Shown here piece by piece: positions 5,253-20,132 of a stretch of 40,107 bases of DNA. Made by a program: the position numbers and the translations under genes. The notes under the pieces were generated by a model. The model had not been told where the DNA came from, searched no databases, and was given only the letters and a program-made list of their open reading frames with translations. The stretch is from a virus. The stretch's first letter is position 1, and the number at the start of each line of letters is the position of its first letter. The stretch spans positions 1 through 40,107 of the IMG/VR virus record IMGVR_UViG_3300049255_000036; one strand, given 5' to 3'.

Positions 5253-5259
5253 GCGCGCT

Positions 5260-5820
5260 ATGAAGGGAATTCATTGCGCGTTTGTGGGGTTTGCAACGGA
5301 TGCCGAGATCAAGCCGCGTAAAAGCAAAACCGGAACCGAGTACCTAGTCCTTTCCGTGTATCGCGCAGGCGATGAGACCGAAGACCGCGAGCTGATTTGG
5401 GTGCGCACGTGGCAAAACGTCGATCAGCTCGTGCAGACGGTAAAACCGTCGTGCCAGCTGTACATCGAAGGCATCGTCACCATAGCGCGCTGGACGGATA
5501 AGCACGGCGCGGACCGATCTGCGTTGTCGGTCAATGCTTCTAAGATCGAGGTGTTTCCGGTGCGCGAGGCCGTCGTGATGGCTGCGGCGCCAAAAGCTAC
5601 AAAGGCGAAAAAAGCAGCGGACAGCACGCCAGCTTTGAGCGAGCAGCCGCCGGCCGCGCGACCAGCCACACCAACACCGGCGGATAACACGGCCGCCGTC
5701 GAGCCAACGACGGCGGCCGCAGCGGCGGAGAAACCAGTGCCGAGCTTATACACCATGCCTGCAAAGCCACAGTCGGGAAAAAAGTATGACCGACCGTTCG
5801 ACGATGCGTTGCCGTTTTAA
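5260..5820 (+). CDS. ssb: Single-stranded DNA-binding protein
   Basis: The 186-aa protein matches bacterial-type SSB: an N-terminal OB-fold region (about residues 1-110, beginning MKGIHCAFVGFATDAEIKP, with YLVLSVYRAG, WVRTWQNVDQLV and LYIEGIV), a long Ala/Pro/Thr-rich linker (about 115-165), and a C-terminal acidic tip ending DRPFDDALPF. In bacterial SSBs this tip recruits replication proteins. It would coat single-stranded phage DNA during replication and fits with the primase-helicase downstream. The OB fold is divergent at sequence level. Confidence 0.9.
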   Translation: MKGIHCAFVGFATDAEIKPRKSKTGTEYLVLSVYRAGDETEDRELIWVRTWQNVDQLVQTVKPSCQLYIEGIVTIARWTDKHGADRSALSVNASKIEVFPVREAVVMAAAPKATKAKKAADSTPALSEQPPAARPATPTPADNTAAVEPTTAAAAAEKPVPSLYTMPAKPQSGKKYDRPFDDALPF

Positions 5821-5825
5821 TTAAC

Positions 5826-5844
5826 CGGCGTGTATTATACGCCG
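5826..5844. promoter_or_regulatory. Inverted repeat, possible promoter/operator upstream of 5876
   Basis: CGGCGT at 5826-5831 pairs with ACGCCG at 5839-5844 around GTATTAT. On the plus strand TTGCCG (5811-5816) and TATTAT (5833-5838) are 16 bp apart, a plausible sigma70-type promoter overlapping the repeat. No T-run follows, so a terminator is unlikely. The word TGTATTATAC (5831-5840) recurs at 12626. Confidence 0.4.
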
Positions 5845-5875
5845 CCTTAAGTATAACTTGAGAAAGGAAAACACG

Positions 5876-6376
5876 ATGAGGCAAGACCTTGCGACCTTCC
5901 AGCGCAACGTGGGAAACTATGAGCTGGCTAAAGAGGCGTCTAACCAAATTATTGCGCAATTCGAACAGGCAAGCTTCGATAACAAGGACGCATGCCGGAT
6001 CTATTTGAGGCAGATCATTACGGTTCATGTGTTCGAGCTGCTCAACCGGACCGGCGCGTCAATACTGCAAGCGACTGCTGCCGAGAGATCCCTTATGAGT
6101 CGCGCGGACCCCATTGTGCACGTGGTCGAGGACGCGGATTTGATTGGCAGCACGGACTCTGCGGCGCGGCCGGCTACACGGTACAAGAAAAAGCGGCCAC
6201 CGATGTCGGCCGAGGCGAGAGCCGCGATCGGCCGCGCAACCAAGGCACGCTGGGAAAGGGCAAAGAAGGAAGGCCGTCCCTATAGAGGCGACTATACAGC
6301 AAAGGGTAAAGCCACCCGCTTGGCGCTTGGCCTCAGAGGCAACGCCAGCCGAGCTACCCTTAACGGGTCTCACTAA
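5876..6376 (+). CDS. Hypothetical basic-tailed protein (166 aa)
   Basis: ATG 5876 has GAGAAAGGAAAA immediately upstream, so it is preferred over the in-frame TTG at 5858. The N-terminal half is helical. The C-terminal third is strongly basic, with a pattern (MSAEARAAIGRATKARWERA) seen at the ends of various DNA-associated bacterial proteins. Nucleic-acid binding is therefore possible. It is separated from the next gene by a long hairpin (6383-6432). Confidence 0.75.
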   Translation: MRQDLATFQRNVGNYELAKEASNQIIAQFEQASFDNKDACRIYLRQIITVHVFELLNRTGASILQATAAERSLMSRADPIVHVVEDADLIGSTDSAARPATRYKKKRPPMSAEARAAIGRATKARWERAKKEGRPYRGDYTAKGKATRLALGLRGNASRATLNGSH

Positions 6377-6382
6377 GACCCT

Positions 6383-6432
6383 TATAGCAGGTTGATCTCG
6401 GCACTACTTACGGTCTGAGATAACCTGCTATA
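6383..6432. repeat. Long inverted repeat (16-bp stem with one bulge)
   Basis: TATAGCAGGTT (6383-6393) is perfectly complementary to AACCTGCTATA (6422-6432). After a single bulged G6394, ATCTC (6395-6399) pairs with GAGAT (6417-6421), leaving a 17-nt loop. It fills the gap between two plus-strand genes and stops just before the SD (GAGG 6436-6439) of the gene at 6445. There is no T-run on either side, so an RNA-processing site, operator or cruciform is more likely than an intrinsic terminator. Confidence 0.65.
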
Positions 6433-6444
6433 CACGAGGTATGT

Positions 6445-7035
6445 ATGAATTCGACTGCGCAAAGCGCAGAGACTAAAACAGCGGCCAAACGAAACGGTGT
6501 CGAGGCACCGATAAACGGTTGGTTTAGAGATAACCCCGCGCTCGATAGCCGTACAATGCGGGTGACCGGTACCGACGTAGACATGCTGTGGCACATGTTT
6601 TCGCGCGCCGATCTGTTAGCGGCAGGCGACGTCGATCTCGATAGGATTATGCTCATTGAGTTTAAGTGCCACCGTCGCCAGCCGGACGCACCGTATCAAG
6701 GCGGTGTAAAAACCTACGCGCAGGACGACACGTTCGACATTATGCGCCAGATCGACGAACAGCTATTGGAGCTGCCGAACGGCAAGCGGCGTGTATTTCT
6801 AGTGCGAGACAACCGGCGCAATAAGGTCAATTTTGGCGGACAGAGATATGTCGTTCACTACGGTCTGCACGTTTGGACCATGTCGGGGTCGACGCCGGAG
6901 AATAGCAAGCACATGTGGTGGGACGGCAAGCCGGTCGATCTCGACACCATGACGCGGGTGCTTCTTTACCAAGTCGACCCGCACGCACTGCGACCCATTG
7001 AATACGAGAATTTGCATTGGCCGCTGAGCAGCTGA
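6445..7035 (+). CDS. Hypothetical protein, candidate PD-(D/E)xK nuclease fold
   Basis: ATG 6445 follows GAGG at 6436-6439. Around residues 40-75 the protein has VTGTDVDML followed about 25 residues later by MLIEFKC: an Asp and an ExK on successive strands as in the restriction-endonuclease fold. Several phage proteins of unknown role show this arrangement. A conserved-looking VHYGLHVWTMSGSTP segment follows. Its place between the SSB and primase-helicase genes suits a recombination, repair or end-processing role. Catalysis is inference from motif spacing. Confidence 0.72.
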   Translation: MNSTAQSAETKTAAKRNGVEAPINGWFRDNPALDSRTMRVTGTDVDMLWHMFSRADLLAAGDVDLDRIMLIEFKCHRRQPDAPYQGGVKTYAQDDTFDIMRQIDEQLLELPNGKRRVFLVRDNRRNKVNFGGQRYVVHYGLHVWTMSGSTPENSKHMWWDGKPVDLDTMTRVLLYQVDPHALRPIEYENLHWPLSS

Positions 7036-7036
7036 C

Positions 7037-7186
7037 GTGGTCACCGTGAAGCGGCACCAGCACATAGACGCGGAGAATAGGCGCTTTGATAAACAGCTGG
7101 CCGAGATTATTGGCTGGCTTCAAAAAAACAATTTGCGCGCCGTGATCCCGATACGGGGTCCGGCGCGATTTGAAAAAACCAGTTGA
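7037..7186 (+). CDS. Short hypothetical protein (49 aa)
   Basis: GTG 7037 begins just after the stop of the preceding gene and the frame ends at TGA 7184-7186. The peptide is basic (starting MVTVKRHQHIDAENRRF, with QLAEIIGWLQKNN further on) and ends shortly before the primase start. The SD is weak. Support comes from gapless packing and composition like its neighbours, so this is a moderate call. Confidence 0.45.
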   Translation: MVTVKRHQHIDAENRRFDKQLAEIIGWLQKNNLRAVIPIRGPARFEKTS

Positions 7187-7202
7187 GAGGTACCCATGCT
7201 CT

Positions 7203-9476
7203 ATGCAAGCACAAGCCATTATAAACGGCCGGCAGCTGCAGGTACTAGCAGCGCTTGGCATCCACTGGCGGCAAAGCTCTAAACACATACGCTGTCCATT
7301 TCCCGACCATGACGACCACAATCCGTCATGGCGGTGGGATGATGCGTCCGGCAAATGGTTCTGCACCTGTGGAAACGGCGACGTGCTCGACGCGGTTCAG
7401 CGCATGCGCGGAGTTGCCTTTAAGGCGGCGGTGGCTTTTGTTGAGCAGGTTGTCGGCGGCACAGCTGCGCCGGCAGCCGCGGTTGCAGAAAAGCCAGCAG
7501 TGAAACGGGGTAAGCAGGCACCGGCGGCAGCTAACGGCAGCGCGGTGGCCACCGCGCTGCCGACACGGCAGCAAATGAGGCTGGCAGACTACGGCGAGCC
7601 TGTGCAGTTCTGGGTCTACCACAACGCCGCCAGGCAAATCGTGGAGGTGCGCGCTAGGTACGAATACCTAAACGGAGGCACCGAACGCAAGAAGGTCGTG
7701 CTGCCGTGGACGTGGAACGGCAAGCGCTGGGTCAATAAGGCCGCGCCGGAGCCGCGGCCACTTTACATGCTGCCGCTGCTGCTCGGCGAGCCACAGCACA
7801 CCGTGCTGCTGGTCGAAGGCGAGAAGTCGGCCGATGCTGCGGCCGAGCTTTTTCCGGCGTACTGCGTTACCACCACGGCAGGCGGGTGTAAGGCGGCCAA
7901 GGGTACCGACTACGCGCCGCTGCGCGAGCGTGACGTTATCATATGGCCGGACAACGACGAGCCTGGCCGCAAGTACGCCGAGACGGTTGCAGCGCTGTGC
8001 AAGCAAGCCAGCGCGGCGTCGGTGCGTATCGTTGACGTGCCACAAGACTGGCCCGCAGGGTGGGACTTAGCCGATACGGTGCCTGAAGGAGCGGAGCCGG
8101 ATCTCGGCGCCTATCTGGAAGAGGCGTACCTGTGGCCACCGAGCGCCGGCGGAAAGGAGGGAAACACCGGCACCGGGAGCGATCACGACTCCGCTAACGG
8201 TAATGTGGTGCAGTTTCCAAAACGCGGCAAGAGGTCAAAACCGTTCAGGGCAAAGGCATCGGCCGAGCAGCTCGAAGGGTTTAACAAGGACGAGGACAGC
8301 GGCTGGCTCTACAAGGACGTCGACAACGTTCTGATAGCCATCGAAAAGCTGGACGTGCAGATCGGCTACGACGACTTTTCACACAAGTACACGGTGTCGG
8401 GTCTCGATGGATACGGCAATGTATTGGACGACGACGCGCTGGCCGAGCTGTACCTACGGATCTGGAGGCAGTTCGGCTTAAAGCTGTCAAAAAGCGAGAC
8501 AGACCTGATAGTGCTGGCCGAAGCGAGGCGGCGGCGCTCGCACCCCGTCAAGGCATACCTCAACGGCATCGAGTGGGACGGGGTCGAGCGCATCGACGAA
8601 TGGCTGTCGACGTACCTGGGAGCCGAAAACAACGACGTCAACCGCGCGGTCGGTCGCGCCGTGCTTATCGCCGCCGTGCGCCGGGTGCGCAAACCAGGCT
8701 GCAAGTTTGACCCGATGATGGTTCTGGAGGGTCCGCAAGGGTGCGGGAAGTCAAGCGCGATCGCCGCGCTGGTGCCAGACCCAGACTGGTTTACCGATAG
8801 CGTTACCCTGCAAATGGATCGCAAGGAGGTCATGGAGCAAACCGGCGGCAAGTGGCTTGTCGAATTCAGCGAGCTAACCGGCATGCGACGGGCGGATCTT
8901 GAACACGTCAAAGCGCTCGTGAGCCGGCAATTTGACGAGGCGCGACTCAGCTACGCGCGGTTTTCTACGAGGCGGCCCCGGCAGTGTGTGTTTATCGGCA
9001 CCACCAACGAATCTCAGTATCTGATCGACGATACCGGCAACAGGAGGTTTCTGCCGGTGCGCGTCGGCACCGTCGATTTGGCCGCTCTTGTGCGCGACCG
9101 AGATCAACTCTGGGGTGAGGCCGCACACTTCGAAGCGCTTGGAGAGTCGCTGGAATTTACGGCCGACATACGCGAAAAACTGGCCGTCGCACAGGCCGAT
9201 CGAGAGGCTCACGACGAGTGGGAATTCGTCGTCCGGGACTGGCTCAACGAGCACCATCCGCCGCCGGATTTGGCCTACACAGGTAGTGCACTAGTACCTG
9301 TCGTCACTATGGGTTTAGTAGCCGAAGGCGCGCTGAAAATCGAAAAAGGCCGGCTAGACGCTGTTTCGCAGAAGCGACTGATGCGCGCCATGAAAAAAGC
9401 CGGCTGGTATAAGGCGCATGCCTCAAACGGCAAAAACCTGTGGAAAAGGCGCGAAAACGGCGATTTAGTGCTCTAA
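7203..9476 (+). CDS. Primase-helicase: CHC2 zinc finger, Toprim and VapE/VirE ATPase
   Basis: A 757-aa fusion. Residues 31-60 hold a CHC2-type zinc site (CPFPDH, then FCTCGNGD) as in DnaG/gp4 primases. A Toprim-like part follows with EGEK at 205-208 and WPDNDEPG near 248-255. After a linker (about 320-350) comes a virulence-associated-E ATPase with Walker A GPQGCGKSS at 510-518, LVEFSEL as likely Walker B, and the TNESQYLIDDTGNRRF sensor region typical of VapE. It probably primes and unwinds phage DNA. ATG 7203 is preferred, with GAGAGG about 12 nt upstream; the frame extends to a TTG at 7170. No DNA polymerase is found in the window. Confidence 0.94.
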   Translation: MQAQAIINGRQLQVLAALGIHWRQSSKHIRCPFPDHDDHNPSWRWDDASGKWFCTCGNGDVLDAVQRMRGVAFKAAVAFVEQVVGGTAAPAAAVAEKPAVKRGKQAPAAANGSAVATALPTRQQMRLADYGEPVQFWVYHNAARQIVEVRARYEYLNGGTERKKVVLPWTWNGKRWVNKAAPEPRPLYMLPLLLGEPQHTVLLVEGEKSADAAAELFPAYCVTTTAGGCKAAKGTDYAPLRERDVIIWPDNDEPGRKYAETVAALCKQASAASVRIVDVPQDWPAGWDLADTVPEGAEPDLGAYLEEAYLWPPSAGGKEGNTGTGSDHDSANGNVVQFPKRGKRSKPFRAKASAEQLEGFNKDEDSGWLYKDVDNVLIAIEKLDVQIGYDDFSHKYTVSGLDGYGNVLDDDALAELYLRIWRQFGLKLSKSETDLIVLAEARRRRSHPVKAYLNGIEWDGVERIDEWLSTYLGAENNDVNRAVGRAVLIAAVRRVRKPGCKFDPMMVLEGPQGCGKSSAIAALVPDPDWFTDSVTLQMDRKEVMEQTGGKWLVEFSELTGMRRADLEHVKALVSRQFDEARLSYARFSTRRPRQCVFIGTTNESQYLIDDTGNRRFLPVRVGTVDLAALVRDRDQLWGEAAHFEALGESLEFTADIREKLAVAQADREAHDEWEFVVRDWLNEHHPPPDLAYTGSALVPVVTMGLVAEGALKIEKGRLDAVSQKRLMRAMKKAGWYKAHASNGKNLWKRRENGDLVL

Positions 9477-9667
9477 CTGCACCGCCACTGCACTTGCCAG
9501 CGAACTTTCCGCAAGTCATTGATTTTGCTATGCCAAAGCAGGGTCTAAGTCCTTATAGTGTAGTAAGTGTAGTAAGATATGAAGATCATATATATAAGGG
9601 AACATAGGGACAGCGCGTCGGAGCGGACGCGCACACGGCGCACGGTGAGCGAACGCAAAACGAGCGC

Positions 9668-9696
9668 TCTATACACTCTGTAGGGTCTTTTGGCAA
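9668..9696 (-). promoter_or_regulatory. Candidate sigma70-type promoter pointing left
   Basis: Read on the minus strand, TTGCCA (9696-9691) and TATAGA (9673-9668) are separated by exactly 17 bp. It would start transcription near 9661 into the non-coding region and antisense to the end of the primase gene. The -10 lies within one of the recurrent GTGTATAG words. Confidence 0.4.
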
Positions 9697-9766
9697 ACTA
9701 ACCGCTCTTACTGCACTAGGGTTAATTTTCGGTTTAATATTGCAATAAGCGAATGTTTTGAGGCAC

Positions 9767-9791
9767 AAAAAAAGGTGGCCTTTTGACCACC
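9767..9791 (-). terminator. Rho-independent terminator of the minus-strand operon
   Basis: On the minus strand GGTGG pairs with CCACC around an 8-nt loop and is followed by seven T (the A-run at 9767-9773 on the plus strand). It lies 24 bp beyond the stop of the last minus-strand gene, exactly where the operon terminator is expected. Confidence 0.8.
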
Positions 9792-9814
9792 GTTTAGAGG
9801 GTGTTTTGGGTGCC

Positions 9815-10234
9815 TTACGCGGCCACGCTGTACCGGCCGTCATCGTCCTTTGCGAGCACACCTTTAGCGTGTAGGCGCCTCAACGCTGTGTAGACGTTGG
9901 CCTTTACGATGTCGCCTCGATAGCCGACGTCGACCAGCGTATCAAGCACGGCACTCGCGGCCGCAGGTTGGCCGATCTTGTTTAGAGCGGCCACCGCAGC
10001 GTCTGACAAGGACAGCTCGGTCGTGACGCCTTCTGTGGCGTTGCCGGTAGCCTTGCGCTTCGGGGGTGCCTTGGTATCGGCCACTCCGTTGATATAGCGC
10101 TCCAGCGCCTTCGTGCGCGCCAAGATGCGGGTCAGCCGCGCAATGGTCTCGGCGGCCTGCTTCTTGGCCAGCTGTGCCTCTTGCAGCTCGGCCTCCCAGG
10201 CTTGGATCTGGTCGGGTGTGATGCTGATGGTCAT
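9815..10234 (-). CDS. Winged-helix protein with N-terminal coiled coil (139 aa)
   Basis: The start at 10234 (minus) has a strong AAGGAGA about seven bases upstream and overlaps the preceding gene as ATGA; the longer frame to 10387 lies inside that gene. Residues 5-45 form a helix likely to be a coiled coil (QAWEAELQEAQLAKKQAAET). Residues about 75-139 read as a winged helix: SDAAVAALNKIGQP, SAVLDTLVDVGY, NVYTALRRLHAKGVLAKDD, GRYSV. It is probably a sequence-specific regulator, the last gene of the minus-strand operon. Direct targets are unknown. Confidence 0.75.
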   Translation of the reverse strand: MTISITPDQIQAWEAELQEAQLAKKQAAETIARLTRILARTKALERYINGVADTKAPPKRKATGNATEGVTTELSLSDAAVAALNKIGQPAAASAVLDTLVDVGYRGDIVKANVYTALRRLHAKGVLAKDDDGRYSVAA

Positions 10235-10443
10235 GCTGAGTCTCCTTGTTTGGTCACGTATTCCATGGCGACGCTGCGCTCGACCTTGATAATCCGGAAG
10301 CGGTCCCACTCGTGATCGAGCCGGCGCTCCATCGCGGTGGAGATGGCGTGGTCGTAATCGACGTAGATACCGGCGCTGGTCTTCCACAAATCAACACTAT
10401 CGCGCTGGTATTCGATAACGTATTGCGGCTTGAATGTGCTCAT
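10231..10443 (-). CDS. Hypothetical protein (70 aa)
   Basis: Starts at 10443 (minus) with GAGG about eight bases upstream. Its stop overlaps the start of the winged-helix gene by 4 nt, so the two are probably translationally coupled. The product has alternating beta and helix segments (PQYVIEYQRDSVDLW, SAGIYVDYDHAISTAMERRL) and no known motif. Confidence 0.68.
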   Translation of the reverse strand: MSTFKPQYVIEYQRDSVDLWKTSAGIYVDYDHAISTAMERRLDHEWDRFRIIKVERSVAMEYVTKQGDSA

Positions 10444-10453
10444 GGTGGGTGCC

Positions 10454-10810
10454 TCAATTGGGGAAAGCGAACCGTTCAGAAATTTTAGGCGTGTCCGTTT
10501 CGCCTAAAAGGTATTCGACGTCGACGACGTCGCCGTCGTTAATTTCATCGAAGTGCTGCTCAATCCATCTGTGCGCCTCCGGCCACGTGCGCGCACCGCC
10601 TTCCCAGCTGTACGGATCGTACGTGGCCGCGCCGCCGCGCATCGGCAGCAGCATCACAAGCGGATAGCCACTAACCCCTTTGCCGGGGTTACGGCCATAG
10701 CCGGTGCGCGATAGCAGGTATCTCTCGGCTTCCGAGCTGGCGACCATTTTGATTGCGATCGCCGGCATGAAGGTATCCCTGTCGCGAGTCTCAATCGCTT
10801 TGATAATCAT
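10454..10810 (-). CDS. Conserved hypothetical protein (118 aa)
   Basis: The start at 10810 has an excellent SD, AAGGAGGT, seven bases upstream on the minus strand. The protein has the phrases RDRDTFMPAIAIKM, RYLLSRTGYG, DPYSW, RTWPEAHRWIEQHF and DVVDVEYLLGETDTPK. This pattern resembles uncharacterised proteins of proteobacteria and their phages. The SD strength suggests high expression. Function unknown. Confidence 0.8.
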   Translation of the reverse strand: MIIKAIETRDRDTFMPAIAIKMVASSEAERYLLSRTGYGRNPGKGVSGYPLVMLLPMRGGAATYDPYSWEGGARTWPEAHRWIEQHFDEINDGDVVDVEYLLGETDTPKISERFAFPN

Positions 10811-10821
10811 AATGACCTCCT

Positions 10822-10992
10822 TCAGTGAAGCTTGCCTGATGGCAGTGACTGCCGGTCCATGCCGGCGTTCGCGTGTTTGCTCAGATCAAAAAGCCGATCA
10901 AACACGCGCTTGCGTTCGGACGGAGTCATCTCGGCAAGCAGCTTGAGTCGTCCGTCCTCGTGCCGTGGCCATGTGCGTTTGTTCTCTGTCAT
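10822..10992 (-). CDS. Hypothetical protein (56 aa), first gene of minus-strand operon
   Basis: The start at 10992 (minus) is preceded by AAGGAGACTCACC, almost identical to the SD region of the winged-helix gene. The peptide is charged and helical (RLKLLAEMTPSERKRVFDRL). It is the first gene of the four-gene leftward operon and diverges from the ribbon-helix-helix gene at 11148. Confidence 0.65.
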   Translation of the reverse strand: MTENKRTWPRHEDGRLKLLAEMTPSERKRVFDRLFDLSKHANAGMDRQSLPSGKLH

Positions 10993-11087
10993 GGTGAGTC
11001 TCCTTGGCACCTCTTAAGCTCTTGGTCCTCTGAATTCACGCTTAAAGCCTCCATGTGTTGTACACCGCGCCACCGTACTCCTGTGTA

Positions 11088-11110
11088 TAGACATGTCAAG
11101 ACATGTCTAG
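11088..11110. promoter_or_regulatory. Tandem palindromic operator between divergent genes
   Basis: AGACATGTCA (11089-11098) is followed directly by AGACATGTCT (11099-11108); each contains the palindrome GACATGTC. TTGACA lies across the site on the minus strand (11098-11093). It lies in the 155-bp gap between the leftward operon and the rightward ribbon-helix-helix gene. Tandem palindromes at 10-bp spacing are typical of Arc/Mnt/CopG operators. Confidence 0.55.
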
Positions 11111-11147
11111 CCTTGCAAGCGCGCTTTTTTGTGGCTATTTGTTTGGC

Positions 11148-11330
11148 ATGGCGAACGAACGGCAGCAGATAAACGTACGCGTGGACGACGATTGGCTGGA
11201 GGCGCTCGATGCGTGGATCGCCGCGCAGCCGGTGCCGCCGTCGCGGAGCCAGGTGGTGATGACGGCGGTACGGCGGTTTATCGAGGACAACCCGCCGCCA
11301 GTGCCAAAGGCGCCGAGATCCGCCAAATAG
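11148..11330 (+). CDS. Ribbon-helix-helix (CopG/Arc-type) regulator (60 aa)
   Basis: The protein from ATG 11148 has the ribbon-helix-helix pattern: strand QQINVRV (residues 6-12), helix DDDWLEALDAWIAAQ, then turn and helix PPSRSQVVMTAVRRFIED. The longer frame from 11103 would put the operator inside the gene and lacks an SD. The SD for 11148 is itself weak, suggesting low expression. It probably binds the tandem palindromes about 40 bp upstream and controls itself and the divergent operon, as Arc and Mnt do in P22. Confidence 0.75.
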   Translation: MANERQQINVRVDDDWLEALDAWIAAQPVPPSRSQVVMTAVRRFIEDNPPPVPKAPRSAK

Positions 11331-11417
11331 GTTGCTATGCAATATCGGGACGCCATTTAATTATGTATACACCAGTGTGCAATCGCGCGCCACACACGAA
11401 AGATCTACATCGGTTTT

Positions 11418-12029
11418 ATGAAGCGTAACAGTCCGAAGAAAAAGAAGCCGCTGAACATCGAGGCGGCGCTCACCGAGCAGCAACGTTTAGCACTTATCCC
11501 TACGGGTCCGGTGACGCCGGCGCGAAGTGCACACGGCGACATCGAGGTCGAGATTGCGGCGTCGACCGAGCGCGGCGAGGCAATCGTGATGCGCCAGCGC
11601 TCGGTGTCTGCGGTGCATAAACTATTAGACCAAGGACTAATAACGCTACATGAGGCTTCGGCGGCACACCATTTCCAAATCGACCACGATGGTGCTTATA
11701 CATCTAGCGCAAATGTATTGGCTGCTATACGCATAGATAATGCGGGGTCTGGCGAGGGTGCCGCTTTGCGACGGGTCGAGCAGGGCGCTCGGTTCCGCGG
11801 TGCTCTCGCCTATCTGCGCGATGAGCTTGGTCGCGTGGCGCTGAATGGGATCTGCGGATCGGTCGACCAGCGCGTTGCCGGGGTTTATCAGTCCATCGGT
11901 GAGGACATCCTTCCGACGTGCTCAGCCTCGGAACAACGCGCCGCCGGCAAGGGTGCGCTCATTTTAGCAATACGCGGACTGGCTCGGTACTACGGCGACA
12001 AATATAGCCGTTATCACAGTAGGCACTGA
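11418..12029 (+). CDS. DUF6456-like protein (203 aa)
   Basis: A basic N-terminus (MKRNSPKKKKPL) is followed by an insert and then a helical core that resembles alphaproteobacterial DUF6456 proteins: VHKLLDQGLITLHEASAAHHF, ALAYLRDELGRVALNGICG, and the terminal KGALILAIRGLARYYG. In relatives the core is found in small regulators. The similarity is from memory of the family layout and is moderate. The SD is weak. Confidence 0.65.
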   Translation: MKRNSPKKKKPLNIEAALTEQQRLALIPTGPVTPARSAHGDIEVEIAASTERGEAIVMRQRSVSAVHKLLDQGLITLHEASAAHHFQIDHDGAYTSSANVLAAIRIDNAGSGEGAALRRVEQGARFRGALAYLRDELGRVALNGICGSVDQRVAGVYQSIGEDILPTCSASEQRAAGKGALILAIRGLARYYGDKYSRYHSRH

Positions 12030-12043
12030 GAAGGACGTTGCAA

Positions 12044-12409
12044 ATGAGCGATAGAACAGATCAAGACAAAATGCCGCGTTTGATTTGGTTGGAGTCCAAG
12101 GGTTGCTGGATTGACCCTCAAGCTATTGCGATGCTTATGAGTATGGCCAACGCGCAAGGTCACAAGGTCGGCACCAAGACTTACAACGCGCATTTACACA
12201 TCGAGACGCGCGCCGGAACTATACTAAAGGTGCCTTGTATCGATGTTAACGGCGCAAACCAGCTGCGCGATACGCTCGGCCGACTCGCAAACTACCGCCA
12301 CGCAAAACCAAAGGTAAGCGCCAGCGTCAATTGGCACGGCACGCCGCAGCCGGGTGACGCCGGTTACGAAGAATTCCGGGACCGTCAGCGCGAGCGGCTG
12401 CACCCGTAA
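12044..12409 (+). CDS. Hypothetical protein (121 aa)
   Basis: ATG 12044 has AAGGAC about eight bases upstream and is preferred over an in-frame TTG at 12038. The product has an alternating beta/alpha layout (LIWLESKGCWIDPQAIAML, NAHLHIETRAGTILKVP) and a charged C-terminus. The family is not recognised. It is the last gene before the candidate structured RNA. Confidence 0.72.
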   Translation: MSDRTDQDKMPRLIWLESKGCWIDPQAIAMLMSMANAQGHKVGTKTYNAHLHIETRAGTILKVPCIDVNGANQLRDTLGRLANYRHAKPKVSASVNWHGTPQPGDAGYEEFRDRQRERLHP

Positions 12410-12420
12410 GTCTTTTTTTG

Positions 12421-12449
12421 TTGAGTGGTAGCAATACACGGTGTATAGA
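12421..12449 (+). promoter_or_regulatory. Sigma70-type promoter of the candidate small RNA
   Basis: TTGAGT (12421-12426) and TATAGA (12444-12449) are separated by exactly 17 bp, placing the start near 12456, at the foot of the first hairpin of the RNA. The spacer and -10 contain the inverted repeat ATACAC-G-GTGTAT (12434-12446), which could be an operator. Confidence 0.55.
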
Positions 12450-12452
12450 TTC

Positions 12453-12602
12453 GCTTGAGGCCGAGAACCGCGCGGCCTCAAGCCGGAAACGACCCCGTCG
12501 TTGACTGTTGCAAGCAAGGATGGTCGACGGGGTCGTTTTCACATCCCTCCATGTGGTCTTGCACGTCTTGTGCGACCCGCGCTTAACGGCGCGGGTTTTT
12601 TT
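12453..12602 (+). ncRNA. Candidate structured small RNA (about 150 nt)
   Basis: No credible ORF, yet nearly every base can pair. Hairpin 1: 12453-12463 with 12473-12483 (11 bp, 9-nt loop). Hairpin 2: 12485-12500 with 12525-12540 (16 bp with one G-U, 24-nt loop). Hairpin 3: ACAT/ATGT (12541-12554). Hairpin 4: GCAC/GTGC (12561-12573), extended by GTC/GAC. Hairpin 5 is an intrinsic terminator with seven T. A promoter fits just upstream. I do not recognise it as a known family. It could act as an antisense or protein-binding RNA. Confidence 0.55.
12575..12602 (+). terminator. Rho-independent terminator
   Basis: CCCGCGC (12576-12582) pairs with GCGCGGG (12589-12595) around TTAACG, extended by an A-T pair, and is followed by seven T (12596-12602). 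A textbook intrinsic terminator on the plus strand. Confidence 0.88.
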
Positions 12603-12629
12603 CTACCTAGCTATCTTGCTTCGGTTGTA

Positions 12630-12653
12630 TTATACATGCCTAACCATGTATAA
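12630..12653. promoter_or_regulatory. 9-bp inverted repeat upstream of 12669
   Basis: TTATACATG (12630-12638) and CATGTATAA (12645-12653) form a perfect repeat around CCTAAC. It lies 15 bp before the start codon at 12669 and overlaps the recurrent TGTATTATAC word (12626-12635). Its symmetry and place suggest an operator controlling the gene at 12669. Confidence 0.5.
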
Positions 12654-12668
12654 CAGCTGGAGTCGGCC

Positions 12669-12980
12669 ATGGAACTAATGCAACGGCTTGAACAGGATCT
12701 GCTGCGTGAGCGTTTGCGTCTTTGTGATTCGAAGCTCAACGCGGCTCAGCAAGAGATACTGCGCTTGGAGCGGTGCTTGGCGGCGACCCGTGTAGCGGAC
12801 AAATATGTAACCCCGTTCCTGGCGGTGGCTCGCACCTTCAGGAATGCCGAGCCGCGCACCATTATTTTGGAGCGCTACGACGGCCAGCCGCATGCGCTTG
12901 AGGTGCTGGACTTTCAGCGACTGCTTCACGCCTTCGAAACCAAGGACCAAGAATGTGGACCGGAATCGCATACATCTTGA
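12669..12980 (+). CDS. Hypothetical protein with coiled-coil N-terminus (103 aa)
   Basis: ATG 12669 has CTGGAG at a good distance. Residues 1-40 are a long amphipathic helix (MELMQRLEQDLLRERLRLCD and on), likely a coiled coil. The rest has no known motif. Its 3' end overlaps the small membrane protein gene at 12953 by 28 nt. Confidence 0.68.
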   Translation: MELMQRLEQDLLRERLRLCDSKLNAAQQEILRLERCLAATRVADKYVTPFLAVARTFRNAEPRTIILERYDGQPHALEVLDFQRLLHAFETKDQECGPESHTS

Positions 12981-13096
12981 TCGGTATAGCCGTGGCGATA
13001 CTAGCGCTCGGCATGGCGAGTGATCGCCATCGCTATAACCCCTGCACGACGGCACCGCTGCGTCAAGACTGCCGGTTTGCTGTAAACCTCCCTTGA
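12953..13096 (+). CDS. Small single-span membrane protein (47 aa)
   Basis: ATG 12953 has AAGGA seven bases upstream inside the preceding gene. The peptide has one hydrophobic helix (residues 4-22, GIAYILIGIAVAILALGMA), then a polar C-terminal part with two cysteines (C31 and C40) that could form a disulfide outside the membrane. The short length and topology recall spanin or holin accessory proteins, but no lysis genes are seen nearby. Confidence 0.58.
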   Translation: MWTGIAYILIGIAVAILALGMASDRHRYNPCTTAPLRQDCRFAVNLP

Positions 13097-13149
13097 CACA
13101 CGCCGCGTCAACACCCATGTCAAGATTATGTCAACAACTACGAGTTGAC
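13093..13149. promoter_or_regulatory. Cluster of five GTTGAC/GTCAAC half-sites upstream of the tRNA
   Basis: TTGAC (13093-13097), GTCAAC (13107-13112), GTCAAG (13119-13124), GTCAAC (13130-13135) and GTTGAC (13144-13149) lie within 57 bp. The last two form an inverted pair. The array ends 10 bp before the tRNA and may be an operator or multi-site enhancer for its transcription. Confidence 0.45.
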
Positions 13150-13159
13150 GACCGGTTTT

Positions 13160-13234
13160 TGCGGAATGGAGCAGTAGCAGCTCGCCAGGCTCATAACCTG
13201 GAGGTCGCAGGTGCGAGTCCTGCTTCCGCACCCA
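13160..13234 (+). tRNA. tRNA with CAT anticodon (initiator-like Met)
   Basis: A full cloverleaf can be drawn: acceptor TGCGGAA (13160-13166) with TTCCGCA (13224-13230); D-stem GAGC/GCTC; anticodon stem CCAGG/CCTGG with loop CTCATAA (anticodon CAT at 13192-13194); variable AGGTC; T-stem GCAGG/CCTGC with loop TGCGAGT; discriminator C13231 and encoded CCA (13232-13234). The A11-T24 pair and overall similarity are like bacterial initiator tRNA-fMet. Position 1-72 is a T-A pair, the D-loop is short without the usual GG, and position 73 is C, all unusual. tRNA-Ile2 with lysidine is an alternative. Confidence 0.85.
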
Positions 13235-13332
13235 ATTGCAGTGTGGCTTAAAGCAAAGCGCGTGGCCTTTTTGCGAGGAGTTGGTGCAAAGCCAGCCACT
13301 GCAGCCATTTTCACTCAAGGCAATCATCACAT

Positions 13333-13433
13333 ATGACCTCCACGAAAGACGGCGACAAGAACGGCAAAGCCGACAAAAAAACATGAAAAAGAAGGTCGAC
13401 CGCAAGGAAGAGCGCAAGGAAGGCAAAAAGTAA
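13333..13433 (+). other. Two overlapping lysine-rich short ORFs (17 and 16 aa)
   Basis: ATG 13333 encodes a 17-aa peptide (MTSTKDGDKNGKADKKT) ending at 13386. It overlaps, as ATGA, ATG 13383, which encodes a 16-aa peptide (MKKKVDRKEERKEGKK) ending at 13433. Both are very basic and lie between the tRNA and the gene at 13437. Alternatively a 49-aa frame from GTG 13284 covers the second. Either could be real; evidence is only composition and tight spacing. Confidence 0.3.
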
Positions 13434-13436
13434 CCG

Positions 13437-13691
13437 ATGCCGGCCGTCAGCAAGGCGCAGGCCGCTTTCATGGCAATGTCCGAGTCGCCAAAAGGTCGCG
13501 CCAAGCTCAAGTCCTCAGGTAAAAAGCCAGCACCAACCGCAGTCGCCAGAGACTTCGTCGCAGCCGACAAGGGTAAAACCAAGTCATTACCTAAGCGTGC
13601 TCCAAAGCGCAAAAAGCCTGCAAGTAACAAACTATCTAATATTAAGACTAAACGCATTAAACCCGCACCGGACACAGACAACAGCGAATGA
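13437..13691 (+). CDS. DUF3008-like small basic protein (84 aa)
   Basis: The N-terminus MPAVSKAQAAFMAMSESPKG matches the start of small phage/bacterial proteins of the DUF3008 type (MPxxSKAQQ...). ARDFVAADKGKTKSLPKR then follows a recurring phage pattern. The C-terminal half is lysine/proline-rich and probably unfolded. Its stop overlaps the next start as ATGA. Function unknown; nucleic-acid binding is possible given the charge. Confidence 0.75.
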   Translation: MPAVSKAQAAFMAMSESPKGRAKLKSSGKKPAPTAVARDFVAADKGKTKSLPKRAPKRKKPASNKLSNIKTKRIKPAPDTDNSE

Positions 13692-14140
13692 GTATTCAGA
13701 TGGTGGACGATGTGAAGACCGTTACACCATCTGCACCGGTCGCACAGCTTGCAGTTACAACCGAAAAGAAACCGCCTCACCGTTTCCAGCCCGGTCAGTC
13801 AGGAAACCCCGCCGGACGGCCTAAAGGAGCGCGAAGCAAGCTAGGCGAGGCATTTCTTGAGGCGATGCTCAAGTCCTTTGAAGAGGGCGGCGCTGACGCA
13901 ATTATGCGCGTTAGGGACCGGCAACCTGAGAAATACTTATCTGCTCTCGTTTCTATTTTGCCTAAGCAAGTTGAGATCGACGGCGACGTGCAGGTAAAGG
14001 TTACCAGCGCGGTCGACAGCCTCGTAGCAAAGCTCGCGGCTCTCAACGCGCGCGAAAAGGAATATGAAGCGGATCGCACGGAGGCCGGCATGAAGACGAT
14101 TGAGCATCAGCCGCTTACTGTTGAGAAGGTCAGCACGTGA
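13688..14140 (+). CDS. DUF5681-containing protein, candidate small terminase subunit
   Basis: Residues about 30-50 contain FQPGQSGNPAGRPKGARSKL, the signature of DUF5681, a domain often found at the N-terminus of phage TerS-like proteins. The rest is helical (GEAFLEAMLKSFEEGG, SAVDSLVAKLAALNAREKEY). TerS recognises viral DNA and loads TerL. TerL lies 4.1 kb downstream, an unusually long separation, so the role is likely but not certain. The ATG overlaps the upstream stop. Confidence 0.75.
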   Translation: MSIQMVDDVKTVTPSAPVAQLAVTTEKKPPHRFQPGQSGNPAGRPKGARSKLGEAFLEAMLKSFEEGGADAIMRVRDRQPEKYLSALVSILPKQVEIDGDVQVKVTSAVDSLVAKLAALNAREKEYEADRTEAGMKTIEHQPLTVEKVST

Positions 14141-14211
14141 CGCTGGCTGTTTTCCTGTGGCTTGTGTGGCTGGTCATTGTAGCGGCTGCTACATCGGATC
14201 GGAAAAGGTAA
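14137..14211 (+). CDS. Single-span membrane microprotein (24 aa)
   Basis: GTG 14137 overlaps the stop of the DUF5681 gene by 4 nt (GTGA) and has GAGAAGG about eight bases upstream. The product is one hydrophobic helix (LAVFLWLVWLVIVAAA) with a basic tail (DRKR), giving an N-out/C-in single span by the positive-inside rule. The SD and overlap argue for translation. Function unknown. Confidence 0.45.
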   Translation: MTLAVFLWLVWLVIVAAATSDRKR

Positions 14212-14625
14212 CACGCATAAGATGGCAGCTGTGTAACTTTGCGTTTCGAGTTTTCGGCCGGACAAGGATCAGGACCTCGCCTCGGACTGCTTATTTGGCG
14301 CCAAAACCCTAGCCTCACGCTCGCGCTATATAAATCTACAGCCGCCGCGGTCGTCACAGTTCGACCATAATTTGACCGCATAGAGACCACATTCGGATCG
14401 AGCGTCTTCTCCTGTATTAGATGCTCCCATACAATAAAGCCTTATGTATCAATGGTTTATGATACAAAGCATGCTTTAGGCGGACGCTAAGGCGGACGAT
14501 ACGCCGCCGGTTGACTCACCCTCTACTTGTGACCACCCGGCCCAGGAAAACGGGACACCGTATCGCGCTAATTCACTGGTGCGCAGGAATTTTTGAAAAT
14601 CCGGATTTGAGTGTGTTTTTAGTGC
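14212..14625. other. Non-coding region with palindromes
   Basis: No credible ORF. Notable are the inverted repeat TGTATCA-N8-TGATACA (14445-14466), the perfect 12-bp palindrome AAAGCATGCTTT (14466-14477), a GGCGGACG doublet (14479-14498) and the first copy of a 45-bp direct repeat. The palindromes touch each other, suggesting an operator or recombination site just upstream of the repeat-flanked cassette. Confidence 0.5.
14496..14540 (+). repeat. 45-bp perfect direct repeat, left copy
   Basis: Identical in all 45 positions to 15201-15245; begins ACGATACGCCGCC and ends GACCACCCGG. It carries the imperfect palindrome GGTTGACTCACC. Sequence outside the copies is unrelated on both sides. Together they enclose a promoter and two small genes. 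Confidence 0.9.
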
Positions 14626-14654
14626 TTGACAACTACGCGCAATGAGCGTATATA
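14626..14654 (+). promoter_or_regulatory. Strong sigma70-type promoter
   Basis: TTGACA (14626-14631), perfect for -35, and TATATA (14649-14654) are 17 bp apart. Transcription would start about 14661, 58 nt before the start codon of the gene at 14719. This is the best promoter match in the window and gives the cassette its own transcription. Confidence 0.7.
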
Positions 14655-14718
14655 TCAAGTCATGGTTAGCACGTCGCTAACCGGCGCGCCTCGGCAAATC
14701 AGGGGCTTGGAGATGAAG

Positions 14719-14961
14719 ATGAGCAACTACAACGACCTGTCCCTTTACCTTGTGTCCGAAGGCGAGGTAAAGCCTGCTACTGTTGATACCAAGTACGACG
14801 GCGCCAACTCCATCCTGGTCGCCGCCACTTCGGAGGACGGCGCGATGAAGGTCGCTGCTGCCTACGACGAGGGACTTGCGCAAGCCGACAACATCTTTTG
14901 GGGCGGCGCGACTATAGCCGCTGTCACGCTGCGCGACCGCGACACAGGTCTTTATGCCTAA
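14719..14961 (+). CDS. Hypothetical cassette protein (80 aa)
   Basis: ATG 14719 is chosen because GGAG (14708-14711) is seven bases upstream; ATG 14713 would be too close and the frame start at 14626 precedes the promoter. The product begins MSNYNDLSLYLVSEGEVKPA and is acidic with alternating beta and alpha elements. Its family is not recognised. First gene of the two-gene module between the 45-bp repeats; overlaps the second by 8 nt. Confidence 0.65.
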   Translation: MSNYNDLSLYLVSEGEVKPATVDTKYDGANSILVAATSEDGAMKVAAAYDEGLAQADNIFWGGATIAAVTLRDRDTGLYA

Positions 14962-15184
14962 CCACCCTAACCGAGGCCCGAAAGGGCCTCGTTCCAATCC
15001 TGCGTCCGCAGACATCATTGCAGGCCGAGAGGCCGCTGGTTTGACGCAGACGCAGGCCGCTGGCCTGGTGTATAGCTCTCTGCGGACATGGCAGCAATGG
15101 GAGGCCGGAGACAGGCGGATGCACGCCGGGCTGTGGGAGCTTTTTAGGCTAAAGACTGAGCTCATTGAGCGCCCCGCGAAGTAG
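14954..15184 (+). CDS. Xre-type helix-turn-helix protein (76 aa)
   Basis: Residues about 18-65 form a lambda-repressor-like HTH: ADIIAGREAAGLTQTQAAGL, YSSLRTWQQWEAGDRRM, then LWELFRLKTEL. The N-terminal 17 residues are a Pro/Gly/Arg-rich arm encoded over a GAAA-capped hairpin (14972-14991). It overlaps the preceding gene by 8 nt. It may regulate the promoter at 14626 or act on phage/host genes. Confidence 0.82.
   Translation: MPNHPNRGPKGPRSNPASADIIAGREAAGLTQTQAAGLVYSSLRTWQQWEAGDRRMHAGLWELFRLKTELIERPAK
14972..14991 (+). other. GNRA-capped hairpin at start of the Xre gene
   Basis: CGAGGCCC pairs with GGGCCTCG around GAAA, an 8-bp stem with a stable tetraloop, only 18 nt after the start codon of the Xre-type gene and 11 nt after the stop of the previous one. 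Only two T follow, so termination would be weak; translational damping is an alternative. Confidence 0.5.
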
Positions 15185-15200
15185 TCGTTCCCACACTCAA

Positions 15201-15245
15201 ACGATACGCCGCCGGTTGACTCACCCTCTACTTGTGACCACCCGG
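15201..15245 (+). repeat. 45-bp perfect direct repeat, right copy
   Basis: Second copy of the 14496-14540 repeat, 705 bp downstream and 16 bp after the Xre-type gene. It is followed by a CCCGG/CCGGG hairpin with a T-rich loop (15241-15258). Confidence 0.9.
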
Positions 15246-15300
15246 TTTTTCTACCGGGGGTAGGTAGGTGCCACCCCCCCCTCAATAGGATTTCTTTTGT

Positions 15301-15510
15301 TTAGCCTAGTAGCGGACTCGCAGGCGATTCCAATTTTAAAGTAATTAAAAAGTTATAAATCAGGGATTGTTGCGCGCTCCCAGCGAGTCTCGCCAAGCTG
15401 CAGGCTTTTAGCCGTTCCCAAATTTTAAAAAAATAAATTTTAAAACGGTCGTAACCCTGTCCGCACTTTGCGCACTTCGCTTGCTTGCCACTCGGCGACC
15501 ACTCGCACAT
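15301..15510 (-). CDS. Possible small zinc-finger-like protein (69 aa)
   Basis: The minus-strand frame from ATG 15510 has C2, C13, C16 and C37 in an order (MCEWSPSGKQAKC, AKCG, then AC) like small phage zinc-binding proteins. The second half is encoded by an AT-rich island and looks less protein-like. There is no SD next to the ATG. The rest of 15246-15518 otherwise holds only the AT-rich island with two copies of AAATTTTAAAA. Could be a decayed gene or chance. Confidence 0.33.
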   Translation of the reverse strand: MCEWSPSGKQAKCAKCGQGYDRFKIYFFKIWERLKACSLARLAGSAQQSLIYNFLITLKLESPASPLLG

Positions 15511-15518
15511 TATACGCC

Positions 15519-15620
15519 GTGTATAGACGTTCTGCTCCCCCGAACGGCACGCCATCTATACACCCCCGGATAGGTGCTGCGTCCGTCGCTTATCCTATGC
15601 TTGCGACATCCTATCCGGGG
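15519..15620. repeat. Double hairpin / back-to-back inverted repeats
   Basis: Two inverted repeats abut exactly. First: GTGTATAGA (15519-15527) with TCTATACAC (15555-15563), and inside it CGTTC/GAACG (15528-15546). Second: CCCCGGATAGG (15564-15574) with CCTATCCGGGG (15610-15620), and inside it GTCGC/GCGAC (15585-15607). It lies between an AT-rich island and the J-domain gene. Possible uses are origin, cruciform, or structured RNA leader. Confidence 0.7.
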
Positions 15621-15646
15621 TCCGCTAATTTGTAAAAGGCTCGACC

Positions 15647-18248: not shown

Positions 18249-19649
18249 TTGACCTCACTAGCCGAGCGCTTGAGTCTTCTACCGGAAGACCAGCGCGCTG
18301 CGATGCTTGCCGAGCTTGGGGAAGACGGCGCTGAAGCACTGCTTTACAAATGGGAATTTTGGGGTCGGCCGGAGCAGTTGCCGCCGCCGGGTGACTGGAA
18401 TACTTGGCTCGTGCTTGCCGGTCGCGGGTTCGGCAAAACACGCATCGCGACCGAGTGGGTGCGCTCTATCGTTTGCGGCGATACCCCGCTGGCAAAAGGG
18501 ACGTGCAGCCGCATTGCCATCGTCGGTGAAACGACGTCAGACTGCCGCGACGTTCTGGTTGAGGGTGTGTCCGGCATATTAGCCGTACATCCGAAGGACT
18601 TCAGGCCATTATACGAGCCATCGAAGCGAAGACTCACCTGGCCGAACGGAGCGGTGGCAACCCTTTTCAATGCAACCGAACCGGACCAGCTACGCGGTCC
18701 GCAGCATGACGCGGCAATCTGCGACGAGCTGGCCAAGTGGCAGTTTCTCGAAGAGACATGGGATATGCTGCAATTCGGCTTGCGGCTTGGAGACCACCCG
18801 CGTCAGGTCATCACCACAACCCCGCGGCCACTGCCAAAAATCAAGGAGATCATGAACGACCCCGGCACGGTCGTCACGCGCGGCTCGACGTTCGATAACC
18901 GGCTGAACCTGCCGCCGAAGTTCATCAAGACCATTGCCGAGCGCTACGAAGGTACTAGGCTCGGCCGGCAGGAACTTTACGGCGAGATCTGCGACGACGT
19001 ACCCGGCGCACTTTGGACCCGCGCTATGCTCGATGGTTGCAAGCTTGGCAAACGAGACGAGCTTCCGGCCATGACCCGCGTCATTGTGGCGATCGACCCC
19101 GCCAACAAAGCAAGCGCTGACAAAGACGACACGGCCGAGACCGGCATCGTTGCTGTAGGCATAGGCACAGACGGCAAAGGGTACCTCATACACGATGCAA
19201 GCTGCCGACTAAACCCCGAAGGCTGGTCGCGCACCGCGCTAGCGGTGTACGACCGTTTCGACGCCGACGCGATAGTCGCCGAGGTCAATCAAGGCGGCGA
19301 CATGGTCGAGAGCGTTATCAAGTCGCAGCGCCGTGACGTAAAAGTCATCAAGGTCCGCGCCAGCCGTGGCAAGGTAACACGAGCCGAGCCAATTAGCGCG
19401 CTTTATGCGCAGGACAAGATACGCCACATCGGCAGTTTTCCGGTGCTTGAGGACCAGATGGTGCTCTTTACCCCGTTCGGCATTGTAGGAAACAGCACCG
19501 CAGACCGCGTCGACGCATTGGTCTGGGGCTTTAGCGAACTTTTTCCGCGACTAATAAAGCGCGCTGAATGGGATGAATACGAAGAAGAGTACGAGCCTTC
19601 ACCCATAACACACCGCTTTAGCGGTCGTTCTAGGTATACGGGTTACTAA
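18249..19649 (+). CDS. terL: Terminase large subunit (TerL)
   Basis: ATP-driven DNA packaging motor and nuclease. The 466-aa protein has Walker A AGRGFGKTR at 57-65, Walker B AAICDE at 155-160, a likely coupling TTTPRP near 190, then an RNase-H-like nuclease region with AIDPA near 279, AEVNQGGDMVES near 345 and DRVDALVWG near 424. It resembles the TerL of gene transfer agents and related alphaproteobacterial phages. The start is TTG 18249: the codon just before is an in-frame TAA and the next Met is 19 codons later. The SD is weak. Confidence 0.95.
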   Translation: MTSLAERLSLLPEDQRAAMLAELGEDGAEALLYKWEFWGRPEQLPPPGDWNTWLVLAGRGFGKTRIATEWVRSIVCGDTPLAKGTCSRIAIVGETTSDCRDVLVEGVSGILAVHPKDFRPLYEPSKRRLTWPNGAVATLFNATEPDQLRGPQHDAAICDELAKWQFLEETWDMLQFGLRLGDHPRQVITTTPRPLPKIKEIMNDPGTVVTRGSTFDNRLNLPPKFIKTIAERYEGTRLGRQELYGEICDDVPGALWTRAMLDGCKLGKRDELPAMTRVIVAIDPANKASADKDDTAETGIVAVGIGTDGKGYLIHDASCRLNPEGWSRTALAVYDRFDADAIVAEVNQGGDMVESVIKSQRRDVKVIKVRASRGKVTRAEPISALYAQDKIRHIGSFPVLEDQMVLFTPFGIVGNSTADRVDALVWGFSELFPRLIKRAEWDEYEEEYEPSPITHRFSGRSRYTGY

Positions 19650-19768
19650 TTTTCTGTCTAATATACTCCAATGCGCCTTGATTGAATCCATTCTTTCTCC
19701 GGCTCCCGCTGGTGAACGTGATTAAGACCCTCGTTCGCGAGCCTTGCTGCACAAGCTAAGATAGCCGT

Positions 19769-19909
19769 TTAGCATAACCCGAAAAGCACCACGTAAAGCG
19801 CAAACCCTGCGCAGGCTACAGCTAAAACAGCCACTTGAAAACCGCGTACCAGCTGGCCATTCCAATAAGCGAAATTGACCACCATGCAACTAGCTCGACC
19901 GGCTTCATA
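19769..19909 (-). CDS. Possible antisense small membrane protein (46 aa)
   Basis: The minus-strand frame from ATG 19909 begins MKPVELVAWWSISLIGNG and continues with a hydrophobic segment (VAVLAVACAGFALYVVLFG). It looks like a two-span miniprotein. A G-rich stretch (GGGGGC) sits upstream in SD position. It is on the strand opposite to all neighbours, in the TerL-19944 gap, whose remaining part (19650-19768) holds nothing I can identify. Hydrophobic composition and start fit a real gene but chance is possible. Confidence 0.38.
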   Translation of the reverse strand, partial: YEAGRASCMVVNFAYWNGQLVRGFQVAVLAVACAGFALYVVLFGLC

Positions 19910-19943
19910 CATGCCCCCATGGTTCATACATTACGTATAATAC

Positions 19944-20132
19944 ATGCAAAAACCTAAACTCAACATTAAAAAGGCGATCAAGCGGCCTGGTGCTCTGCAC
20001 AAAAAGCTTGGGGTGGCCAAGAGTAAAAAAATACCTGAGGCGAAGCTCAAGAAAGCGGAGCACTCGAAAAACAAACTCTTGGCGCAAGAGGCACGTTTTG
20101 CGGAGACCTTGAAAAAGGTTCGCCGCAAATAA
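19944..20132 (+). CDS. Small basic phage protein (62 aa)
   Basis: Lysine-rich helical peptide beginning MQKPKLNIKKAIKRPGALHK, then LGVAKSKKIPEAKLKKAEHS. The KKAIKRPGAL phrase recurs in small proteins near phage head genes. There is no SD; a TATAAT (19936-19941) lies too close to the ATG to drive it. It may be a minor DNA-associated virion protein. Confidence 0.68.
   Translation: MQKPKLNIKKAIKRPGALHKKLGVAKSKKIPEAKLKKAEHSKNKLLAQEARFAETLKKVRRK

What the first reader, a model, noticed from the sequence alone, without database searches (positions are those of the whole stretch)
12421..12602. Candidate phage small RNA with promoter, four consecutive stem-loops and terminator
Seen: a 17-bp-spaced TTGAGT/TATAGA promoter, then 150 nt with no gene in which almost every base pairs (11-bp and 16-bp stems, two small hairpins), then a textbook intrinsic terminator with seven T. 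Known: this architecture is that of independently transcribed regulatory RNAs. Inference: a phage-encoded sRNA, possibly controlled by the ATACAC-G-GTGTAT repeat within its promoter. It does not look like any RNA family I know.
Basis: partly seen in the sequence, partly recalled or inferred. Interest (0 to 1): 0.82.

Follow-up and report, generated by a model that had tools for sequence, protein, structure and literature searches.

The report
Orphan phage small-RNA gene with own controls
An uncultured phage carries a short stretch with no protein gene that very probably makes a tightly folded ~145-letter RNA switched by one of the phage's own control sites; it matches no known RNA family, has no detectable relatives, and its job is unproven.

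Summary
12450-12605 folds to -79.3 kcal/mol (shuffles -54.1, z -5.4, 0 of 200) and is the most over-folded of 1998 windows of this phage and of 14,270 windows from 26 phage records. Two long stems and the seven-T terminator each beat all shuffles; the two small hairpins do not. The promoter is only 8/12, but its -10 lies in a palindrome (CTATACACNNNGTAT) found exactly at three intergenic places of this genome (about 0.005 expected), so control by a phage regulator is credible. No Rfam family reaches threshold. No homologue was found in about 250 related loci or 385 alphaproteobacterial genomes; the nearest relative's contig stops about 1 kb short, so covariation is untestable. Best reading: a new, orphan, operator-controlled phage sRNA. 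Its most exposed hexamer is CCCUCC, an anti-Shine-Dalgarno sequence, so silencing of Shine-Dalgarno-led mRNAs is the mechanism I favour, weakly. Main rivals: a terminated late-operon leader (lambda pR'-tR' type), or a structured 3' end of the upstream operon. In passing: this phage's late genes lack Shine-Dalgarno sequences (0/20 against 12/20 early).

The parts
12421..12449 (+). sigma-70-like promoter TTGAGT-17-TATAGA (8/12)
   Evidence: weak by itself (8/12 matches with spacing 16-18 occur 3.6 times per kb per strand)
12434..12448 (.). palindromic operator CTATACACNNNGTAT (minus strand), overlapping spacer and -10
   Evidence: exact copies at 6428+, 12434-, 15512-; within 2 mismatches 7 matches against 1.1 in shuffles, 0 of 100 shuffles reach 7
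12456..12602 (+). predicted non-coding transcript of about 145 nt (start inferred from the -10)
   Evidence: z -5.4, 0 of 200 shuffles (on 12450-12605); top of 1998 windows
12453..12483 (+). stem-loop 1, 11 perfect bp, 9-nt loop; the predicted start lies 3 nt inside it
   Evidence: z -4.75; perfect arms
12485..12540 (+). stem-loop 2, 14 perfect bp (16 in all) plus inner 7-bp stem, loop GCAAGCAAG
   Evidence: z -5.2; the only 14-bp perfect stem with a spacer of about 30 nt or less in the window
12540..12555 (+). stem-loop 3, CACAU-CCCUCC-AUGUG, anti-Shine-Dalgarno sequence in the loop
   Evidence: most accessible hexamer of the RNA, P(open) 0.84; the hairpin itself is only z -1.8
12561..12573 (+). 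small stem-loop 4
   Evidence: not significant alone
12574..12602 (+). intrinsic terminator, 10-bp stem, 4-nt loop, seven T
   Evidence: best plus-strand terminator of 9-19 kb; z -4.9
12412..12419 (+). T-run just after the stop codon of the upstream gene, no good hairpin before it
   Evidence: fold z +0.3, so not a convincing terminator
12625..12654 (+). promoter-like TTGTAT-18-TATAAC with inverted repeat TATACATG-N6-CATGTATA, likely separate promoter/operator of gene 12669-12980

Best explanation
12421-12602 is a self-contained phage small-RNA gene. Host RNA polymerase starts near 12456 at a promoter whose -10 region is a palindromic operator read by a phage-encoded DNA-binding protein that also controls at least two other intergenic sites; it stops at the terminator near 12602 and releases a stable non-coding RNA of about 145 nt (these steps are inferred from sequence; the fold and the operator are statistically supported). 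The long stems 1 and 2 would protect and display it, and the loops act: the exposed CCCUCC of hairpin 3, and secondarily GCAAGCAAG of stem-loop 2, pair with mRNAs. I think the most likely action is blocking ribosome binding on Shine-Dalgarno-led mRNAs of the host or of the phage's own early genes (inference, weakly supported; about one third of the probability given to the sRNA reading).
For: Folding z -5.4, 0 of 200 shuffles; rank 1 of 1998 windows and of 14,270 windows of 26 phage records. Strong terminator. Operator shared exactly with 6428 and 15512, near copy at 9669; half-site GTGTATAG 8 against 0.48 expected, 0 of 100 shuffles reach 8, all 8 outside the genes called by script and all left of 15.6 kb (one, 15068, lies in the small HTH ORF 14954-15184 that the script did not call). 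The phage encodes two small candidate regulators: ribbon-helix-helix-like 11148-11327 (PHROG repressor E 0.006, Pfam RHH_1 E 0.04) and HTH 14954-15181 (HTH_31 E 2e-5). The gene after the RNA has its own promoter-like site and inverted repeat. Blocking the terminator hairpin costs about 9 kcal/mol, so it is not a switching attenuator on its own. CCCUCC is the most accessible hexamer of the 12456-12602 RNA (0.84) and stays open (0.79-0.88) with starts at 12410, 12450 or 12458.
Against: No transcript data. Promoter hexamers weak. No homologue, hence no covariation. The anti-SD loop sits in a hairpin not significant by itself; anti-SD loops before terminators are not enriched in related phages; target prediction against this phage's own start regions gives nothing convincing. 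Related phages carry NusG-like antiterminators upstream of their late genes, which favours the leader rival.
Confidence: 0.5

Rival explanations
1. Late-operon leader, like lambda pR'-tR': the promoter is a late (or delayed) promoter; by default RNA polymerase stops at 12602 and leaves a short structured by-product; a phage antiterminator lets it read on into 12669, the tRNA, the DUF5681 gene, terminase and the structural genes, all on the plus strand.
For: Called genes from 12669 to about 38 kb read rightward; DUF5681, which lies beside terminase in relatives, is at 13688. Relatives L181, L182 and L179 have a NusG-like protein (the L181 one hits PF02357, E 5.6e-10) upstream of the late genes, and in L181 a folded stretch with a terminator follows it directly. 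Lambda pR' with its tR' terminator is the model (PMC4604602).
Against: No NusG-like or Q-like protein found in the window. No -10-like pause element seen in the first transcribed bases. Genes 12669 and 15647 have promoter-like sites of their own. In L182 the next gene follows its NusG-like gene with no structured gap.
Confidence: 0.25
2. Structured 3' end of the upstream operon (11148-12409): the hairpins protect or end that mRNA, possibly releasing a processed 3'-UTR sRNA; the promoter match is accidental.
For: The T-run at 12412 has no good hairpin, so the upstream operon probably ends at 12602; the promoter is only 8/12.
Against: A three-fold exact operator coincides with this promoter; four hairpins are more than an operon end needs.
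Confidence: 0.15
3. DNA-level element (protein-binding inverted repeats, packaging or replication site) rather than an RNA.
For: Arms are near-perfect and both strands fold well; some relatives have a huge palindrome or iterons upstream of the terminase (L014, L019).
Against: G.U pairs make the plus strand better by about 7 kcal/mol, and only it ends in a T-run; no iterons in the region.
Confidence: 0.06

Closest known systems
Independently transcribed phage sRNAs (e.g. VpdS of VP882, PreS and OOP of lambda; review PMC12197685)
   Same: phage-encoded and short; like OOP, made from its own promoter; the seven-U terminator tail is of the kind Hfq-dependent sRNAs have (own knowledge)
   Different: no sequence or structure relation tested or seen; no expression or target data here
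Rfam RF02837 anti-hemB (Burkholderia RNA 7)
   Same: CCUCCCU/CCCUCC C-rich stretch followed by a GC-rich terminator (E 0.005)
   Different: 21.7 bits against a gathering score of 49.5; the match is mostly terminator; 5' half unrelated
Alphaproteobacterial anti-SD hairpin sRNAs with CCUCCUCCC loops (SmelA075/SmelA099, PMC3927594; 'cuckoo' RNAs)
   Same: serial hairpins and an anti-SD loop sequence
   Different: those carry CCUCCUCCC in every one of three or four loops; here a single loop has CCCUCC
Lambda late leader (6S) RNA, pR' to tR' (PMC4604602)
   Same: short terminated transcript with a control site inside the promoter, upstream of the late genes
   Different: no Q gene or pause element identified; genes downstream have their own promoter-like sites

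Membership tests
Independent (intergenic) bacterial/phage sRNA | own promoter | tested here: inconclusive
   8/12 hexamers, weak, but overlapped by a three-fold exact operator
Independent (intergenic) bacterial/phage sRNA | stable structure beyond chance | tested here: met
Independent (intergenic) bacterial/phage sRNA | intrinsic terminator with U-tail | tested here: met
Independent (intergenic) bacterial/phage sRNA | non-coding | tested here: met
   only 28-56-codon plus-strand ORFs with TTG starts and no SD
Independent (intergenic) bacterial/phage sRNA | detected transcript of the right size | not testable with these tools
   no expression data for an uncultured phage
Independent (intergenic) bacterial/phage sRNA | conservation with compensatory changes | not testable with these tools
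   no homologue found; nearest relative's contig ends short of the locus
RF02837 anti-hemB | score at or above the gathering threshold | tested here: not met
   21.7 against 49.5 bits
'cuckoo'/SmelA075-type anti-SD RNAs | CCUCCUCCC loop in each of several hairpins | tested here: not met
   one CCCUCC loop only (definition from PMC3927594)
Lambda-type late leader (pR'-tR') | antiterminator gene (Q- or NusG-like) in the phage | tested here: not met
   no Pfam, NCBIfam or PHROG match for the upstream genes; no tblastn match to relatives' NusG-like proteins; an unknown antiterminator is not excluded
Lambda-type late leader (pR'-tR') | terminator between promoter and a long co-directional late cluster | tested here: met
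HK022 put-type antitermination RNA | two conserved hairpins at the 5' end that suppress downstream terminators | not tested
   two 5' hairpins are present; sequence match to put and activity not tested

The most novel reading that the evidence does not exclude
The RNA is a phage translation switch: made under a phage operator, its exposed anti-Shine-Dalgarno loop masks SD-led mRNAs (host and phage early genes), while the phage's late genes, which have no SD (0 of 20 against 12 of 20 early), escape and take over the ribosomes.
Probability: 0.05. Interest if true: 0.88.

Novelty: new member of a known kind. Interest (0 to 1): 0.5.

Why it matters
Phage-encoded sRNAs outside enterobacterial phages are little catalogued. 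This one has unusually clear anatomy and no known relatives. If the anti-SD loop acts as suggested, it would tie an sRNA to the striking early/late difference in Shine-Dalgarno use of the same phage, a directly testable way for a virus to retune translation.

Tried and rejected
Coding gene: only ORFs without SD or ATG. Riboswitch-like attenuator: the alternative without the terminator hairpin is about 9 kcal/mol worse. CRISPR-repeat mimic: one weak minus-strand match, E 0.23, on the terminator. Replication origin: no iterons; the origin-like palindrome and iterons of L014 and L019 are not homologous. Rfam near-misses are mostly terminator matches; two control stretches of the same length from this phage gave best E-values of 3.1 and 0.86 against 0.005 for anti-hemB, which remains a hint only. 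Covariance-model hits L162 and L163 are GC-rich stretches without a T-run at the end and were taken as chance. Searches with the three neighbouring proteins and the primase found no relatives in IMG/VR. Terminase and portal searches found relatives, none with the locus. Anti-SD loops before terminators: 4 cases against 0-4 for control motifs, no enrichment; the L181 case does not fold into the anti-SD hairpin in its minimum-energy structure. Folded upstream proteins were too uncertain (pLDDT 59 and 37) to search with.

Full report
What the window is. The window is a 40,107-base IMG/VR virus record of a tailed phage: C5 methyltransferase, VapE-like primase/helicase, terminase and an SU10-like portal. 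Terminase relatives are mostly in alphaproteobacterial genomes at up to 58% identity and in viral contigs at up to 65%. The closest relative found, L164 (portal 80%, terminase 87% identical), covers the late genes only and ends about 1 kb short of the locus.

The observation. All the elements described are present at the stated positions. The folding is far better than chance (z -5.4), the most extreme of both strands of the window after GC correction and of 26 phage records. The two long stems and the terminator carry the signal (each 0 of 200 shuffles); the two small hairpins do not. Both strands fold well because the arms are near-perfect inverted repeats, but wobble pairs and the T-run favour the plus strand.

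Transcription signals. TTGAGT-17-TATAGA is 8 of 12; such matches occur 3.6 times per kb per strand for spacings 16-18, so the promoter is weak evidence alone. The most over-represented 9-mer of the window, against an order-2 background, is GTGTATAGA (5 against 0.09), and one copy is this -10. Its core GTGTATAG occurs 8 times against 0.48, only at 83-15563. Extended, the site is a palindrome CTATACACNNNGTAT, exact at 6428, 12434 and 15512 and one mismatch off at 9669. The pattern was derived from these sites, so the counts are descriptive, but the excess is large; the figure of 0.005 exact matches expected is a simple 4^-12 estimate of mine. I infer a phage operator over the promoter. Candidate binders are an RHH-like protein (11148-11327) and an HTH protein (14954-15181), both weak family matches; which one binds is unknown.

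Boundaries. Upstream, the T-run after the 12044 gene lacks a hairpin, so upstream transcripts may run through. Downstream, gene 12669 has its own promoter-like site with an inverted repeat. The terminator is strong and not in competition with another structure.

What it does. Pairing sRNAs act through exposed loops. The most exposed hexamer is CCCUCC (P 0.84), the next region GCAAGCAA. CCUCC is the ribosomal anti-SD core. Known sRNAs use such loops to block ribosome binding sites, and alphaproteobacteria have families with CCUCCUCCC loops (PMC3927594). The weak Rfam match to anti-hemB covers this loop and the terminator. Against it: hairpin 3 is not significant alone, such loops are not enriched in relatives, and the phage's own start regions give no clear target.

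A related fact. With curated starts, 12 of 20 early genes pair with the anti-SD at -4.5 kcal/mol or better and 0 of 20 late genes do (Fisher p 4.5e-5). By a uniform first-ATG rule 1 of 17 late genes passes -5, against 48% of 290 genes of control phages (p 6e-4). My gene caller prefers starts with an SD, so the late result is not produced by it. Most late-gene homologues in L164 and L165 also lack one, while two other relatives (L175, L180) are SD-poor as well, so this may be a group or host trait unrelated to the RNA. Joining the two gives the novel case, for which I give 5%.

Rivals. The phage's late cluster (DUF5681, terminase, portal and on) follows in the same direction. Relatives have NusG-like antiterminators before their late genes, in L181 followed by a structured stretch with a terminator. 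A lambda-like late leader is therefore the strongest rival; no antiterminator was recognised in the window. A 3'-UTR structure and a DNA-level element are less likely.

Verdict. A real, very probably transcribed, structured non-coding element; an orphan candidate sRNA under a phage operator; function unproven. Shown: structure, terminator, repeated operator, absence of known family. Inferred: start site, regulator, trans action, anti-SD mechanism.

Noticed in passing
window 157-12669 against 18249-36222: Early genes carry Shine-Dalgarno sequences (12/20), late structural genes none (0/20), with AT-rich leaders; mostly also in the relative L164/L165.
   Followed up: partly
window 6428, 9669, 12434, 15512 (half-sites also 83, 11083, 15068, 15556): Shared palindromic operator CTATACACNNNGTAT, a likely phage regulon, only in the left 15.6 kb.
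   Followed up: partly
window 11088-11109 and 12631-12652: A second inverted-repeat type, TA(G/T)ACATG-N6-CATGT(C/A)TA, in front of the RHH-like gene and of gene 12669; 2 matches against 0.04 expected.
   Followed up: no
window 14496-14540 and 15201-15245: Identical 45-bp direct repeat, 705 bp apart; the second copy lies at the start of a 460-bp AT-rich non-coding stretch (15185-15646) that could be an origin or control region.
   Followed up: no
window 15563-15621: Long leader hairpin CCCCGGATAGG...CCTATCCGGGG between the 15512 operator and the DnaJ-domain gene 15647.
   Followed up: no
window 6383-6393 and 6422-6432: 11-bp inverted repeat TATAGCAGGTT...AACCTGCTATA overlapping the 6428 operator.
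   Followed up: no
L014 8150-8335; L019 1540-1670: Very large palindrome (z -13) right after the primase in L014, and GTGCACC iterons in L019: likely replication origins.
   Followed up: partly
L181 66-614, L182 1200-1742, L179 4217-4735: NusG-like proteins upstream of the late genes of related phages (PF02357 hit for the L181 one); in L181 directly followed by a structured intergenic stretch with a terminator.
   Followed up: partly
L008 1571-1636: Two interleaved inverted repeats (pseudoknot-like) just upstream of the tRNA-Met gene of a distant relative.
   Followed up: no
window 13160-13234: Phage tRNA-Met (CAT), also present in L008.
   Followed up: no
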